From NCBI GenBank assembly GCA_016793305.1, contig JAEUHU010000152.1, positions 1 through 9,128 on the forward strand: a stretch of DNA of 9,128 nucleotides. Direction: 5' to 3'. The stretch comes from Planctomycetota bacterium (GTDB lineage Bacteria > Planctomycetota > UBA1135 > UBA2386). The position numbers and the translations under genes are program-made. Shown in pieces: positions 2,994 through 9,128 of the stretch. Under the pieces are notes generated by a model, which was not told the origin of the DNA, searched no databases, and saw only the letters and a program-made list of their open reading frames with translations. Each line of letters starts with the position of its first letter. The first letter of the stretch is position 1.

Positions 2994-3070
2994 GCACCCG
3001 TAGCTCAATTGGATAGAGTACCAGACTACGAATCTGGTGGTTGGAGGTTCGATTCCTCCCGGGTGTACCA
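2994..3070 (+). tRNA. tRNA-Arg, anticodon ACG, CCA encoded
   Basis: A complete 77-nt cloverleaf is visible. The acceptor stem pairs GCACCCG (2994-3000) with CGGGTGT (3060-3066), followed by discriminator A (3067) and CCA (3068-3070). The D arm is GCTC (3003-3006) with GAGT (3016-3019). The anticodon stem CCAGA (3021-3025) pairs with TCTGG (3033-3037) around the loop CTACGAA, placing anticodon ACG at 3028-3030. The T arm is GGAGG (3043-3047), TTCGATT, CCTCC (3055-3059). ACG is the arginine anticodon normally deaminated to ICG by TadA so that it reads CGU, CGC and CGA. The first pair, G1-U72, is a wobble; all other acceptor pairs are Watson-Crick. The gene stands alone between pckA and the dioxygenase gene. 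Confidence 0.97.
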
Positions 3071-3239: not shown

Positions 3240-3839
3240 ATGAGCCCGTCGACGCACCGCGAAGCGCCGGACGCCTTCCCGCCCGACTACCTCGACAGCC
3301 TAGCGCGGAACATCCGCTCGTGCCGGCTGTTCACGGTCAACAACCTGAACCGCGACTTCGTCGGCACGCGCGGCTTCTCGGTGGTGTTCGTGCGCGACCA
3401 GCTGCCGAAGGTCGAAGAGCAGTTCCCGTTCTTCGCGCCCTACCTGCAGCGGGCGCTGCGTGCGGACTGCAATGCGTTCTACCTGAACCCGCTGCAGCTC
3501 GAGGCCGGTTCGCGGGTCGACGCGCACGTCGACCGCAGCCTGCGCAGCTACTGCAAGGACATCACGACCCCGCTCGAGGTCAGCGTGCTCTACGTCGACG
3601 TGCCGCCCGGCATGCGCGGCGGCACGCTGGTGCTGGCGCGCGGCAAGAAGACGCTGGCGCGCGTGGTGCCGCGGCCGAACCTGCTGATCGGCTTCGACGG
3701 CGACCTGACGCACTCGGTCGAACGCGTCGACACGCCCGGCAAGCGCTTGAGCCTCGTCTGCGAACAGTACGCACTCGACGAGCGGGAACTCGCCGAGGTG
3801 CCGCGCTACCGCCTCGAGACGCGCGCCCGCGAGTACTGA
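3240..3839 (+). CDS. 2OG-Fe(II) dioxygenase-fold protein
   Basis: A 199-aa single-domain protein predicted to be a cytosolic non-haem iron oxygenase using 2-oxoglutarate and O2; the substrate is unknown. The double-stranded beta-helix signature is complete: His96 and Asp98 (in DAHVDRS) form the HxD pair, His158 (in LTHSVERV) is the distal iron ligand, and Arg169 (in [11 protein letters not shown]), eleven residues later, is placed to bind the 2OG carboxylate. GGTLVLARG at about 124-132 fits the strand region between the two halves of the site. There is no signal peptide or membrane segment. The ATG at 3240 is preferred because the frame upstream runs back through the tandem repeat, the hairpin and the tRNA gene; an in-frame GTG at 3135 is a weaker alternative. 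No Shine-Dalgarno is visible. Its stop faces that of the minus-strand gene 16 bp away, and no neighbour points to a pathway. Confidence 0.85.
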
Positions 3840-3855: not shown

Positions 3856-6042
3856 TCACGGGCTCGACCACTGCACCGCGTCCCATTCGCCGAAGCGGTC
3901 GGGGCCGCCTTCGCGCGGTGGGCGGCGGGAACTGCGCATGCGCTGCTGGATCGTCGTGCACTTCGCCGCCAGCGCCGCGTCGCCACGTGCCTGCGCACTG
4001 CAACGCGCGATCTCGACCGCCCCGAACGCCCATTCGCTGTAGGCCGTGCCCTGCGACCACGCGACCAGCGTCGGGTCGGTGCTCCGCCACTGCGCGTCGG
4101 TGAACGGGGCGCCGTCGAGCCAGCGGATCGCCATGCCGACCTCGTTGACGGAGTCGGTGACGAGCCAGCCGTGCCGCACCACGTTCTGCGCCAGCGCCTC
4201 GGCGAGTTCGCGCGCCTTCTGGTTGCCGGTGATCCGGTGCTGCGCGCCGAAGCCGACCGCGGCCATCGCGTCCTGCCAAGGGTTCCAGTAGCGGCAGCTG
4301 CCCTGCAGCAGGCGGCCGTCCGGATCGCAGACCATCATCGGCCGCACCCGGTCGGCGGCGAGTGTGCGGCCGGCCCATTGCTCGAAGTAGACGCGATCCA
4401 TGCGCTCGTCCATGCGCTGCCGCAGCGCTGCGTCGTCTTCGATCAGCGCGATCCAGGCGGCGGTCAGCGCCGTGCGGCCGCCGCCGCGCGGCGCGCCGGC
4501 GTTCGACGTCGACCAGCCGGGCTTGGTCGTCTGGCCGGCGCGGTAGAGCCGCGCTTCGTTCTGCAGCTCGGCCCGCGCCCAGTGGGCTCCGGTAAGCAGC
4601 GCGAACGCGCTCATCGTCGCACTGCTCCAGTGTTCGCGGTCCTTGCCGGTCCAGCCGTGCGTCTCGTGCGGAGCCTGCGGATCGGTCTTGCCGAGGCGAT
4701 CGGGCGACACCGACGCATGCCAGTGCGTGCGCCCGGCCCACACGACCCAGTCGGGGTGCGCCGCCGGCTCGACCGGCCGGCCGTCGACCTCGAAGAAGTG
4801 CACCGCGCGGCAGGCCTCCTGCAGCAGCGAGGCCTCGGCCTCGAGCAGCAGGCTCGGCAGGCCCGACCACGCGACCGGCGACAGCTTGACGACGCCGAAG
4901 TCGTTCTGGTCGCCGGTCTGGCCGGCGATGCGCGCCATGCCGAGCGGCCCCGCGGCGAACGGATCGCCGCCGGCGCGATCGCTGGCGACGAACGCGGCGT
5001 GCCGGCCGGCCAGCCACTGCCGCAGCCCCGGTTCGGGCAGCCACGGCGGCGGTTCCGGCACCACGCCGTAGGGGCCGAACGCACCGCTGTGCCGCCACGA
5101 CGACGACGCCGCCAGCGGCGGCACCACGACCGCGGCCTGCAGCGTCTGGTCGGCGACGCTGCGATCGCCGCGCAGCGCTGGCACCCAGGCGCCGAGCCGC
5201 CGCAGTCCCTGCCCGTCGCCGATCGGGCGATCGCGCAGCAGCACGGCGCGGCTGCCGGTCGGATTCGTCTCCTGCTGCACGGCGAGCCGGCCGGCGTGGC
5301 GGAACAGCAGCGCTCGGCCGCGGCTCTCGACCGCGAGCTCCTGCACCTGGAAGGTCAGCTTCGGCGTGCGCGGGTCGGAGCACCACACTCCCAGCTCGAC
5401 GTAGGCGTGGCCCTGGTCGCGGAAGGCGACCACGTGCAGTTCGACCAGCAGGCCCGTGTCGCCCAGGCGCGCTCGGCGCAGTTCGACGCGCCGCAGCGGG
5501 TTCGCTTCGAGGTCGCCGACGCGCACCGGCTCGGCGCGCGCCGTCACGCCGTCGACGGTGGCGACCACTTCGAGGGTTCCGTCGGGCATCGGCACCTCGC
5601 CCTCCGGCAAGGCCGGGCCGGGGCCCGGTCGCAGCGTCAGCGTGCGTTCGCCGATCGGCTCGAGCTCGGTGGCGAACAGGCAGATGGCCTGCCGCAGCGA
5701 ACCGTCGGGCCAGCGCATGCCGAACGGTTGCCACGCGGTGCGCTGGCCGTCGACGTGCAGGTCGGGCATCGTCGGCACTTCACCCGGCGCGAACGAGACC
5801 ACCGCGGCGATGCCCTCGCGGCGCGCGAACGGGGCGAGGTTCTGCACGATCACCGTCGGCGCGGCGGTGGCTGAAGGAGGCGGCTCGGGCACGGGTGTTG
5901 GTGCCGGGGACGGCTCCTGCGCGAGGAGTCCGCCGGTGAGTGCGACGGCGAGGACGGCGACCAGACCGCGGAGCCGCCGGCCGGCGGGTCGGCAGAAGCG
6001 CCCGGCGGCGACGAGTCCCTTGGCCACGGATCGCACGTGCAT
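3856..6042 (-). CDS. Secreted protein of unassigned function, possible exo-lyase/YetA-like architecture
   Basis: A 728-aa product I do not recognise with certainty. Residues about 1-41 form an export signal: a long Arg-rich n-region, hydrophobic GLVAVLAVALTGGLLA at 26-41, and likely cleavage before QEP. A low-complexity Pro/Ala/Ser linker covers 43-62. Residues 63-140 look like a beta-barrel: a VQNLAPF start, a PGEVP turn, and FGMRWPDGSLRQ at 107-118. This resembles the N-terminal RIFT-barrel domain of exo-rhamnogalacturonan-lyase/YetA-like proteins. A beta-rich middle runs to about 310. The rest, roughly 335-700, is helical and rich in Trp and His, with HETHGW and DREHW at 459-472, as in alpha/alpha-toroid enzymes that act on polysaccharides. 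The ATG at 6042 puts the signal near the N-terminus; the frame stays open to 6156 but that adds nothing signal-like. It is transcribed divergently from the NRPS gene. A role in glycan breakdown is inference only. Confidence 0.8.
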   Translation of the reverse strand: MHVRSVAKGLVAAGRFCRPAGRRLRGLVAVLAVALTGGLLAQEPSPAPTPVPEPPPSATAAPTVIVQNLAPFARREGIAAVVSFAPGEVPTMPDLHVDGQRTAWQPFGMRWPDGSLRQAICLFATELEPIGERTLTLRPGPGPALPEGEVPMPDGTLEVVATVDGVTARAEPVRVGDLEANPLRRVELRRARLGDTGLLVELHVVAFRDQGHAYVELGVWCSDPRTPKLTFQVQELAVESRGRALLFRHAGRLAVQQETNPTGSRAVLLRDRPIGDGQGLRRLGAWVPALRGDRSVADQTLQAAVVVPPLAASSSWRHSGAFGPYGVVPEPPPWLPEPGLRQWLAGRHAAFVASDRAGGDPFAAGPLGMARIAGQTGDQNDFGVVKLSPVAWSGLPSLLLEAEASLLQEACRAVHFFEVDGRPVEPAAHPDWVVWAGRTHWHASVSPDRLGKTDPQAPHETHGWTGKDREHWSSATMSAFALLTGAHWARAELQNEARLYRAGQTTKPGWSTSNAGAPRGGGRTALTAAWIALIEDDAALRQRMDERMDRVYFEQWAGRTLAADRVRPMMVCDPDGRLLQGSCRYWNPWQDAMAAVGFGAQHRITGNQKARELAEALAQNVVRHGWLVTDSVNEVGMAIRWLDGAPFTDAQWRSTDPTLVAWSQGTAYSEWAFGAVEIARCSAQARGDAALAAKCTTIQQRMRSSRRPPREGGPDRFGEWDAVQWSSP

Positions 6043-6191: not shown

Positions 6192-9128
6192 ATGGGATCC
6201 ACTCTCGCCGCGGTCTTCGTCGGGTCCGACACCCTGTTGCTGCAGTGCCTCGAAGCGTTCCGGGAGCGGGGCCATCGGGTGCTCGCCGTCGCCACCGACA
6301 CCGACAAGGTGCGCCGCTTCTGCGCCGAACAGGGCCTGCGCTGCCTCGACGCCACCAGGGACCTGGCGACCCAGCTGGCCGGGGAGTCGTTCGACCACCT
6401 GTTCGCGATCACCTGGCTGAGAATGCTGCCGCCGTCGGTGCTGGCGCTGCCCAAGCGCTCGACGATCAACTTCCACGACGGGCCGCTGCCGCGCTACGCC
6501 GGCTTGAACGCGACGTGCTGGGCCTTGGCCAACGGCGAGAGCGAGCACGCGATCACCTGGCACCTGGTCGAGCCGAAGGCCGACACCGGCGCGATCCTGC
6601 TGCAGCGCCGCTTCCAGGTCGCCGCCGACGACACCGCGTTCACGCTGAACGCGCGCTGCTTCCAGGCCGGCACCGACTCGTTCGCCGAGCTGGTGCAGGG
6701 GCTCGCCGCCGGCACGGTGACGCCGGTGGCGCAGGACCTCGCGGGCCGCAGCTACTTCGGCAAGCACGCGCGCCCCGAAGCCCTGGCGGTGCTCGACTGG
6801 ACGAAGCCGGGGGCCGAGCTGGCGCGCCTCGTGCGCGCGTTCGACCACGGCGGCTACAAGAACCCGATCGCGATCGCCAAGGTGGTCGCGAGCCACGGCG
6901 TGTTCGTGCCGGGCGCCGTCGAGCTGGTCGCCGGTGCGGGTGCGGCTCCCGGCCTCGTGACGCAGGTAGGCGAGGACCTGGTGCAGGTCGCCTGCGCCGA
7001 CGGCGAACTGCGGCTCTCGCGGCTGCGCTGCCTGCGCGGCCTGCCGCTCGACCTCGGCGCGCTGCAGCGCTACGGCGTGATGCAGGGCGTGCGCCTGCCG
7101 CACGCCGACGCCGCGGTGCAGGCGCTGCGCACGGAGCTCGGTTCGCTCGCCGCGAAGGGGGAGGACAGCTGGGCCGAGGCGCTGCGTCGGCAGGAGCCGC
7201 TGCCGGTGCCCGACGGCCAGCCCGGCACGGGCAGCAGCGATCCGGCCGAACTGCCGGTTGGGCTCGCCGGCGTCGGTACCGCCCCCGCGGCGGCGGCGCT
7301 GTGCGTCGGGTTCCTGCAGCGCGCCACCGCGGCCGCGGAGTTCACGATCGGCGTGCGCCACGGCGGCCACGCGCGCTTCGTCGACGGCTGCGGCGAGCTC
7401 CTGGTCGCGGCCCCGCCCGCGCACTTCGTCGCGGTCGCCGGCGAGACCGCCGCGGCGGCGCTGCAGCGCTTCGCCGGCGAACTGCAGGCCCATGCCGCGC
7501 GTGGGCCGCTGCTGCGGGAACTGGTGGTGCGGCGGCCGGACGTGCTGCCGCCGACCACGCCGCTCGACCATCCGGTGGTGGTGTCGCTCGGTGCCCCGGT
7601 GCGGCCGGCACCGGCGGGAACGGTCGAGTTCGCGGCCGGCACCGACGGTTCGCTGGTGTTGCGCTTCGATCGCCATGCGCTGCCGCAGGCCCGCGCCGAA
7701 GCGCTACTACGCCGCCTGCAGGTGTTCGCGCGCGCGGTCGCTGCGAACGGCACGACGCCGCTCGTGGCGGTGCCGATGCTCGACGAAGCAGAGCTCGAGC
7801 AGGTGCTCCGAACGTGGAACCAGAGCGACGCGCCAGCCCCCGCGGAGCCGTGCGTGCACCGCCAGTTCGTGGCGATGGCGCACAAGCGCTCCGAGCACGT
7901 GGCGCTGCGCGTGCGCGGCGAGTCGCTGACCTACGGCCAGCTGCTGCAGCGCGTCGAACGGCTCGCCGGCTGGCTGCGGGGCCGCGGCGTCGGCGTCGGC
8001 GACCGCGTCGGCATCTGCGTGCCGCGCGGCTTCGGCATGGTGGTGGCGGTGCTGGCGACGCTGCGCTGCGGGGCCGCCTACGTGCCGCTCGACCCGAGCT
8101 ACCCGACCGACCGGCTGCAGTTCATGGCGCAGGACGCCGAACTCGCGGCGCTGGTCGTCGATCGCGGCAGTGCGGCCGCGGCCCCGAGTGCTGCCTGCCC
8201 GCGCGTCGACCTCGACGCCGACGCGAACGCGATCGCCGCCGCCCCGGTGCTGCTCGACGATCCGACCGACGGGGAGCGGCTCGCCTACCTGATCTACACC
8301 TCGGGTTCGACGGGGCGCCCGAAGGGCGTGATGGTGCGGCATCGCAACGCCACCAACTTCTTCGCCGGCATGGACCGTGTGCTCGGCACCGAGCCCGGCA
8401 CCTGGCTCGCGGTCACCAGCCTGTCGTTCGACATCTCGGTGCTCGAGCTGCTGTGGACGTTGTGCCGCGGCTTCACCGTCGTCGTGCACCAGGGCGAAGG
8501 CGCCGCAGCACACCAGGCCGCCGCGAAGCCGCCGGTGCAGGCCCGGCCGATCACCTTCAGCATGTTCTACTTCGCCAGCGACGAAGGCGAGCACGCGGAG
8601 GACAAGTACCGGCTGCTGTTCGAGGGCGCGCGCTTCGCCGACGCGAACGGCTTCGAGGCGGTGTGGACGCCGGAGCGCCACTTCCACGCCTTCGGCGGCC
8701 TCTACCCGAACCCGGCGGTCGCCAGTGCGGCGATCGCGACGATGACCAAGAACGTGGCGATCCGCGCCGGGTCGTGCGTCGTCACGCTGCACCACCCGAT
8801 CCGCGTCGCCGAGGACTGGGCGCTGGTCGACAACCTGTCGCGCGGCCGTGTCGGCATCGCCTTCGCCGCCGGCTGGCACGCGCGCGACTTCGTGCTGCGG
8901 CCGGAGACGTTCGCCGACCGCAAGAACGCGATGATGCGCGCGATCACGCAGGTGCACGCGCTGTGGCGCGGCGACGCGGTCGAGTTTCCCGGCCACGACG
9001 GCAAGCCGATCGCGATCCGCACGCTGCCGCGGCCGCTGCAGAAGACGCTGCCGAGCTGGCTGACCGTCGCCGGCAACCCGGAGACGTTCCGCATGGCGGG
9101 CGAAGCCGGCTGCTTCGTGCTGACGCAC
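6192..9128 (+). CDS. NRPS-like protein: formyltransferase, remnant condensation, adenylation domain interrupted by luciferase-like monooxygenase; C-terminus beyond window
   Basis: The frame is open for 979 codons to the window end. Residues 1-200 are a formyltransferase domain with Asn93 and His95 (in INFHDGPLPRYAG) and Asp131 (in KADTG), matching the catalytic Asn106, His108 and Asp144 of E. coli methionyl-tRNA formyltransferase with the same spacing. Residues 200-300 resemble its C-terminal domain. Residues about 320-550 look like the C-terminal lobe of a condensation domain, ending in the usual junction before WN; no HHxxxDG motif is present. The adenylation domain follows: A1 LTYGQL (579-584), A2 from 624, A3 LAYLIYTSGSTGRPKG (697-712), A4 SFDISVLE (745-752). 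From about 785 a flavin-dependent luciferase-like monooxygenase interrupts it (TPERHFHAFGGLYPNP at 826-841). The combination is known in MupA/Atu3671-type proteins of specialised metabolism. ATG 6192 begins directly at the formyltransferase fold; no Shine-Dalgarno is seen. The rest of the A domain and any carrier domain lie outside. Confidence 0.93.
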   Translation, partial: MGSTLAAVFVGSDTLLLQCLEAFRERGHRVLAVATDTDKVRRFCAEQGLRCLDATRDLATQLAGESFDHLFAITWLRMLPPSVLALPKRSTINFHDGPLPRYAGLNATCWALANGESEHAITWHLVEPKADTGAILLQRRFQVAADDTAFTLNARCFQAGTDSFAELVQGLAAGTVTPVAQDLAGRSYFGKHARPEALAVLDWTKPGAELARLVRAFDHGGYKNPIAIAKVVASHGVFVPGAVELVAGAGAAPGLVTQVGEDLVQVACADGELRLSRLRCLRGLPLDLGALQRYGVMQGVRLPHADAAVQALRTELGSLAAKGEDSWAEALRRQEPLPVPDGQPGTGSSDPAELPVGLAGVGTAPAAAALCVGFLQRATAAAEFTIGVRHGGHARFVDGCGELLVAAPPAHFVAVAGETAAAALQRFAGELQAHAARGPLLRELVVRRPDVLPPTTPLDHPVVVSLGAPVRPAPAGTVEFAAGTDGSLVLRFDRHALPQARAEALLRRLQVFARAVAANGTTPLVAVPMLDEAELEQVLRTWNQSDAPAPAEPCVHRQFVAMAHKRSEHVALRVRGESLTYGQLLQRVERLAGWLRGRGVGVGDRVGICVPRGFGMVVAVLATLRCGAAYVPLDPSYPTDRLQFMAQDAELAALVVDRGSAAAAPSAACPRVDLDADANAIAAAPVLLDDPTDGERLAYLIYTSGSTGRPKGVMVRHRNATNFFAGMDRVLGTEPGTWLAVTSLSFDISVLELLWTLCRGFTVVVHQGEGAAAHQAAAKPPVQARPITFSMFYFASDEGEHAEDKYRLLFEGARFADANGFEAVWTPERHFHAFGGLYPNPAVASAAIATMTKNVAIRAGSCVVTLHHPIRVAEDWALVDNLSRGRVGIAFAAGWHARDFVLRPETFADRKNAMMRAITQVHALWRGDAVEFPGHDGKPIAIRTLPRPLQKTLPSWLTVAGNPETFRMAGEAGCFVLTH

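What the first reader, a model, noticed from the sequence alone, without database searches (positions are those of the whole stretch)
6192..9128. Start of an uncharacterised NRPS-type gene cluster with formyltransferase, remnant C, and A domain carrying a monooxygenase
One continuous frame joins four activities that are rarely found together: formyl transfer, a vestigial condensation lobe, amino-acid adenylation, and flavin monooxygenation. Similar proteins are known as MupA/Atu3671-type, but few have an assigned product. Here the gene stands next to housekeeping and secreted-protein genes with no recognisable cluster genes upstream, so the cluster must extend beyond 9128.
Basis: partly seen in the sequence, partly recalled or inferred. 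Interest (0 to 1): 0.8.

Follow-up and report, generated by a model that had tools for sequence, protein, structure and literature searches.

The report
Lone glycine-oxidising assembly-line starter module
The window ends inside a gene for a single-module enzyme predicted to load glycine, put a formyl group on it and oxidise it; in related planctomycetes this module stands alone, while the kind of polyketide synthase that is its neighbour in many other bacteria lies elsewhere in the genome, so the pathway looks split rather than clustered.

Summary
In detail: window 6192-9128 is one frame, cut by the window end, with formyltransferase, C-terminal lobe of a condensation domain, A domain through A4, and part of a MupA/Atu3671-family luciferase-like monooxygenase. 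Relatives show the continuation: rest of A, one carrier domain, stop. A following cluster is not supported: in 18 relatives' loci with a downstream gene, none looks like a module. The A-domain code, DILQLGVVWK in 19 of 22 rows of this clade, resembles DILQLGMIWK reported for glycine domains with such monooxygenases. In other clades the gene shares its locus with a PKS in 61 of 76 loci. In the window's family such a PKS lies elsewhere in the genome: in 21 of 21 genomes with the lone gene, in 0 of 11 without the gene; but presence changes only twice on the tree. A hydrolase near the lone gene tracks one PKS type, suggestively. Best reading: an unlinked glycine starter module for a PKS. Product, oxidation chemistry and the window species' own partner are not shown.

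The parts
6192..9128 (+). 5' part (979 of about 1550 codons) of the FT-(C lobe)-A(LLM)-PCP synthetase gene ('F0' in this report)
   Evidence: open frame; full-length homologue P0001 1552 aa, 95% identical
6222..7007 (+). Formyltransferase domain (NCBIfam PRK06988 stretch, residues 11-272); N93-x-H95 at 6468-6476 and D131 from 6582
   Evidence: aligned with Fmt 5uai and ArnA; N/H/D kept in 100, 99 and 98 of 106 rows; of the others 4, 4 and 5 are gaps, 2, 3 and 3 other letters
7107..7808 (+). C-terminal lobe of a condensation domain without the HHxxxDG lobe (the formyltransferase takes its place)
7878..8507 (+). N-terminal part of the adenylation domain, motifs A1-A4 (A3 8295-8327, A4 8424-8450; motif names recalled)
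   Evidence: PF00501 residues 563-772; motif positions
8544..9128 (+). First 195 residues of the luciferase-like monooxygenase inserted between A4 and A5 (WTPERHFHAFGG 8664-8699); runs off the window
   Evidence: TIGR04020 309 bits; insertion place seen in full homologues; nearest solved structure PuwE 6ket, 2e-113 for the full domain of L030

Best explanation
The gene encodes a single starter (loading) module that works in trans with a type I polyketide synthase encoded elsewhere in the genome. Inferred mechanism: the A domain activates glycine and loads the carrier domain; the formyltransferase domain formylates the glycyl amine from 10-formyl-tetrahydrofolate; the FMN-dependent monooxygenase embedded in the A domain oxidises the glycyl thioester, most likely at the alpha carbon as reported for myxothiazol, melithiazol and solanimycin; the C lobe is a scaffold, not a catalyst; the carrier then docks to the KS of the PKS, which adds a malonate unit, reduces, dehydrates and releases by its TE. 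Shown by sequence: domain order, the carrier and stop in relatives, glycine-type code, the PKS in the same locus in other clades, its unlinked presence in this family. Inferred: each catalytic step, the docking, the product.
For: Domains and folds. Code DILQLGVVWK in 19 of 22 rows of this clade (one DILQLGVIWK, two cut short), DILQ[LMFC]G[MV][IV]WK in 82 of 84 other rows, two cut short; four glycine A domains with such an oxygenase are reported with DILQLGMIWK (PMC12283262, passages). PKS in the same locus in 61 of 76 loci L067-L142. In the F0 tree the window's clade is one clade (support 100) of 22 rows; 21 of them have a locus in hand, none with the PKS in the fetched stretch; it is sister (support 94) to three Ramlibacter rows, which have it. 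PKS type A is sister to the Ramlibacter PKSs plus a G001 PKS. All 21 family genomes with the lone gene have such a PKS: type A 15, type B 5, fused type C 1. Type turnover needs 5 changes on a ribosomal-protein tree with no loss found. An alpha/beta hydrolase, next to F0 or near it, is found in 13 of 15 type-A genomes and 0 of 6 others; 5 of 5 independent pairs agree without G001 and G024, 3.8 of 5 on average with them, none opposite. G033 holds F0 and PKS 11.3 kb apart on one contig near polysaccharide-type genes.
Against: No chemistry, expression or product. F0 presence changes only twice on the tree, so 21 of 21 is not 21 independent cases; the sign tests stay at p 0.06-0.25. F0 and PKS-A distances correlate (r 0.68, Mantel 0 of 2000; type B r 0.58, 149 of 2000), but common descent alone would give that. 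The window and G001 lack the hydrolase beside F0, and G001 has only a 190-aa piece of PKS-A at a contig end besides a type C hybrid, so the window species' own partner is unknown. Type-A assignments of G001 (190 aa), G003 (422 aa), G007 (1256 aa), G024 and G034 (two pieces each) rest on fragments. The PKS could serve another starter.
Confidence: 0.6

Rival explanations
1. The module is the first gene of a conventional cluster that continues past 9128 with further NRPS or PKS modules.
For: Distant homologues do share a locus with a PKS (61 of 76 loci; L048-L052).
Against: 19 of 19 complete 3' ends in the window's own clade stop after one carrier domain, and none of 18 downstream genes in hand looks like a module; G001, the nearest, has a convergent secreted-type gene there.
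Confidence: 0.07
2. The module is self-sufficient: it makes and releases a small oxidised formylglycine by itself or with the neighbouring hydrolase, and the unlinked PKS is unrelated.
For: No PKS in the fetched stretch in 21 of 21 loci of the clade (several contigs are short, and G033 has it 11.3 kb off); an alpha/beta hydrolase lies next to or near it in most of 13 relatives. Four distant loci also lack the PKS with about 10 kb on both sides (L074, L084, L087, L130).
Against: The hydrolase is missing beside F0 in the window and was not found in PKS-B genomes; its presence follows the PKS type; no family genome was found with the lone gene and without such a PKS.
Confidence: 0.2
3. The monooxygenase oxidises the glycyl nitrogen, giving N-formyl-N-hydroxyglycyl (hydroxamate, hadacidin-like) or an oxime.
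For: An oxygenase acting on a glycine primer is proposed for the necroxime oxime (PMC7318616, passages); formyl plus N-hydroxyl on glycine is the structure of hadacidin (recalled).
Against: In the systems with the oxygenase in a glycine module's A domain that I could read about, hydroxylation is placed on the alpha carbon (PMC10204066, PMC11342130, passages).
Confidence: 0.15
4. The gene is a decaying relic of a lost pathway.
For: C domain reduced to one lobe; PKS no longer adjacent.
Against: dN/dS 0.27 and 0.43 against G001; FT triad, A code and carrier serine kept nearly throughout; found in all 8 held genomes of the genus; HHxxxDG is missing in 104 of 106 homologue rows, linked PKS versions included, some rows being cut short.
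Confidence: 0.03

Closest known systems
MupA/Atu3671-family LLM synthetases (TIGR04020): FT-A(LLM)-PCP with a KS-AT-KR-DH-ACP-TE PKS in the locus, e.g. Rhodobacteraceae, Hydrogenophaga and Sphingomonas loci among L067-L142
   Same: Same domain order where checked (L142 by Pfam; alignment), same glycine-type code, 41-48% identity in the best segment.
   Different: There the PKS (61 of 76 loci), a GT2 (44) and a PPTase (44) are in the locus; in the window's family the PKS is not.
Myxothiazol/melithiazol, corallorazine-like and solanimycin (SolF) glycine modules with an oxygenase in the A domain (PMC10204066, PMC11342130, passages)
   Same: Oxygenase within a glycine-type A domain.
   Different: Those modules take over an upstream acyl chain; here a formyltransferase takes the place of the condensation N-lobe.
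LgrA (linear gramicidin) formyltransferase-A-PCP starter module
   Same: FT then A then carrier; LgrA is the best PDB sequence match of the A part, and its FT is matched weakly (3e-6).
   Different: LgrA's first module has no C lobe and no monooxygenase (recalled); the FT here is nearer Fmt and ArnA.
C-A(LLM)-PCP genes in G060 and G035 (L053, L054); G011 L055 looks similar
   Same: Same A(LLM) core, placed in the F0 tree; L053 is complete with carrier, L054 and L055 are cut.
   Different: C domain with HHxxxDG in L053 and L054, no FT motif found.

Membership tests
MupA/Atu3671 LLM family (TIGR04020) | score over the curated cut-off | tested here: met
   309.1 bits against 244.45, on the 191 residues in the window
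NRPS module | A domain with core motifs on both sides of the insert | tested here: met
   A1-A4 in the window; A5-A10 in P0001 and other homologues only
NRPS module | carrier domain with serine | tested here: met
   PF00550 in L030; Ser in 100 of 106 rows, 5 gaps, 1 Ala; not in the window itself
NRPS module | catalytic condensation domain HHxxxDG | tested here: not met
   no HHxxxDG in the window protein; only L053 and L054 of 106 rows show the motif, some rows being cut short
Formyltransferase (Fmt/ArnA type) | Asn-His-Asp triad | tested here: met
   N93, H95, D131; their role as triad is recalled
Glycine MOx module (MtaG/MelG type) | glycine specificity code with oxygenase in the A domain | tested here: met
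   8 of 10 code letters as DILQLGMIWK of PMC12283262; by sequence only; in the window only the first three letters can be read, the rest come from homologues
Glycine MOx module (MtaG/MelG type) | alpha-hydroxylation activity | not testable with these tools
   needs enzyme assay
Clustered FT-A(LLM)-PCP / PKS system | PKS in the same locus | tested here: not met
   0 of 21 loci of the clade with the PKS in the fetched stretch, several of them short; G033 has it 11.3 kb away

The most novel reading that the evidence does not exclude
In this planctomycete family a starter unit is made by an unlinked module that serves interchangeable PKS partners (types A, B, perhaps the fused type C), with formyl used as a small N-acyl group so that alpha-hydroxylation of glycine yields a glyoxylyl (or N-formyl-alpha-hydroxyglycyl) starter; in type-B genomes and many Proteobacteria the product is tied to polysaccharide synthesis. 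A starter module with swapped partners, and a traceless formyl group, would be new to me.
Probability: 0.15. Interest if true: 0.75.

Novelty: new variant of a known kind. Interest (0 to 1): 0.5.

Why it matters
The same module recurs in genomes from many phyla, mostly with the PKS in its locus, and my searches found no paper that assigns this pair a product (an open-access library only, listings and passages). If split and partner-swapping in planctomycetes, cluster-based genome mining would miss or misread it, and co-variation across genomes gives a way to name its partners and test the chemistry directly.

Tried and rejected
A cluster downstream: rejected for the clade. A multi-module NRPS: rejected (stop after the carrier). 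Hadacidin or oxime as main reading: kept as a rival only. A first Fisher test of 18/20 against 0/12 was superseded after fragments in G003, G007 and G034 were identified; the later tests are 20/20 against 1/12, p 9e-8, and 20/20 against 0/11 without G034, p 1e-8, but presence changes only twice on the tree, so neither p is to be trusted. G034 was moved from 'absent' to 'present' because its contig ends inside 28 residues of the gene. G011 and G015 have linked forms and stand outside the 21 and the 11; for G011 this rests on the end of an A-carrier gene before the PKS at a contig end. The genus-level test (9/9 against 0/8) has the same weakness. A first species tree used reading frames that were partly not genes; it was rebuilt from six ribosomal proteins, with 29 of 34 genomes (G004, G005, G019, G027 and G032 gave no L2 hit). 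Gene calls come from my own script; starts of L033, L034 and L037 are too long, and L168/L169 hold spurious frames. Both large trees are FastTree. Linkage labels there count any PKS of the family in the fetched stretch; of 15 loci without it 11 have under 4 kb on one side; L063-L066 were left out of the 76 because they repeat G012, G017, G024 and G004. Weak hydrolase-fold hits in many genomes (G001, G009 and G023 among them) and two further short pieces in G007 and G004 were not counted. A count of condensation domains across relatives did not complete. The free-standing LLM genes were not followed.

Full report

Continuation. The window's assembly is not held; G001 shares 25% of its sampled 31-letter words. 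G001 contig C227 carries the homologue from residue 498 on (89% identical) and ends with A5-A10, a carrier and a stop, followed by a convergent gene. The protein search gave 537 hits (candidates capped; best 120 listed): P0001 is 1552 aa and 95% identical, 112 of the 120 are 1490-1601 aa long, 116 carry FT, A and LLM domains. Where a listed name gives a phylum it is Planctomycetota; most have no such name. In 20 loci of the clade 19 hold the end of the gene; all 19 stop after the carrier; 18 show a downstream gene, 15 of them convergent. So carrier and A5-A10 are met, further modules are not.

Specificity and active sites. Over 106 homologue rows the code is DILQ[LMFC]G[MV][IV]WK where readable, DILQLGVVWK in 19 of the 22 rows of the window's clade. 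PMC12283262 (passages) reports four glycine A domains with monooxygenase, all DILQLGMIWK. FT triad and carrier serine are kept in most rows. The oxygenase sits between A4 and A5 (motif names recalled); that paper's introduction places such inserts between A8 and A9, which is not what these sequences show.

Elsewhere. Of 76 loci (L067-L142) 61 hold a PKS of one family, 44 a GT2 family, 44 a PPTase of one of two families, 21 a WecG-type family; Pfam of one set, L142: KS-AT-KR-DH-ACP-TE, GT2, PPTase, WecG. Four loci with about 10 kb on each side lack the PKS. In Phaeobacter inhibens a PKS (Inhi_1972) and an NRPS (Inhi_1974) two locus tags apart are listed without product (PMC4062626, passages); that these are the same pair is my guess.

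Split in the window's family. The F0 tree puts 22 rows (20 relatives, the window, P0001) in one clade; the 21 with a locus have no PKS in it; sister (support 94) are three Ramlibacter rows that have it. Searching for type I PKS (PF16197), fetching 20 loci, then others and a protein search showed homologous PKSs elsewhere: type A, about 40-44% over full length to the linked PKSs; type B, about 51-54%, beside genes that look like Wza, Wzc, WecG and glycosyltransferases (by eye and by shared family with L142); type C, fused to C-A-PCP-TE (G009; G001 in pieces). Type A: G001, G003-G007, G010, G012, G017, G024-G026, G030, G031, G034; type B: G002, G008, G023, G028, G033; type C only: G009. The 11 without F0 (G013, G014, G016, G018-G022, G027, G029, G032) have none of the three; G022 and G032 have other PKSs. 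These 11 are 62-95% complete. F0 presence changes twice on the trees, so this is few events; PKS type changes five times without a loss found. F0 and PKS-A distances correlate, as common descent alone would give.

Hydrolase. An alpha/beta hydrolase (E below 1e-70) is in 13 relatives, all type A: next to F0 and divergent in seven by gene calls, next to it by position in G004, G010, G031 and G034, one gene away in G017, on another contig in G030, whose F0 contig starts within the gene. A homologue (30-36%) lies between PKS and F0 in Myxococcus, Comamonas and Pyxidicoccus loci. It is not beside F0 in the window or G001's contig, and was not found in type B and C genomes, where only weak hits occur or none. 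Fisher 0.0005 ignoring kinship; 5 of 5 independent pairs agree without G001 and G024 (p 0.06), 3.8 of 5 with them (p 0.125-0.25). This ties the F0 locus to an unlinked PKS type, but does not reach 0.05. PPTase-family genes: two in each genome of the genus but G001, where none was found in a 56% complete assembly.

Reading. A glycine starter module acting in trans on a PKS. The alpha-carbon reading follows solanimycin, myxothiazol, melithiazol and corallorazine-like systems (PMC10204066, PMC11342130, passages), in some of which cleavage leaves a glyoxylyl thioester. N-oxidation stays possible. Product unknown.

Noticed in passing
L056-L062 (G023, G026, G004, G031, G017, G035, G010): Free-standing 361-379 aa luciferase-like monooxygenases, 49-55% identical to the window's LLM part, not next to the lone module.
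   Followed up: no
L165:4967-14305 (G009); G001 C323 and C6: A 3112-aa PKS-NRPS hybrid (KS-AT-KR-DH-ACP-C-A-PCP-TE); G001 has 68% identical pieces on two contigs.
   Followed up: partly
L143, L161, L162, L164, L166: A second, different type I PKS family with two small genes of like sizes upstream, in G007, G004, G005, G032, G010.
   Followed up: no
L048, L050 (G006, G015): A second, PKS-linked form of 1958 and 1962 aa; Pfam of L048 shows a methyltransferase before the A domain's C-terminal part. G006 carries it besides the lone gene.
   Followed up: no
window 3240-3839 (+) and 3856-6042 (-): Two proteins without Pfam or NCBIfam match; relatives of both lie by the lone gene and the PEPCK family in G008. 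The first has an HxD...H pattern like 2-oxoglutarate oxygenases (by eye).
   Followed up: partly
window 2994-3070 (+): tRNA-Arg(acg).
   Followed up: no
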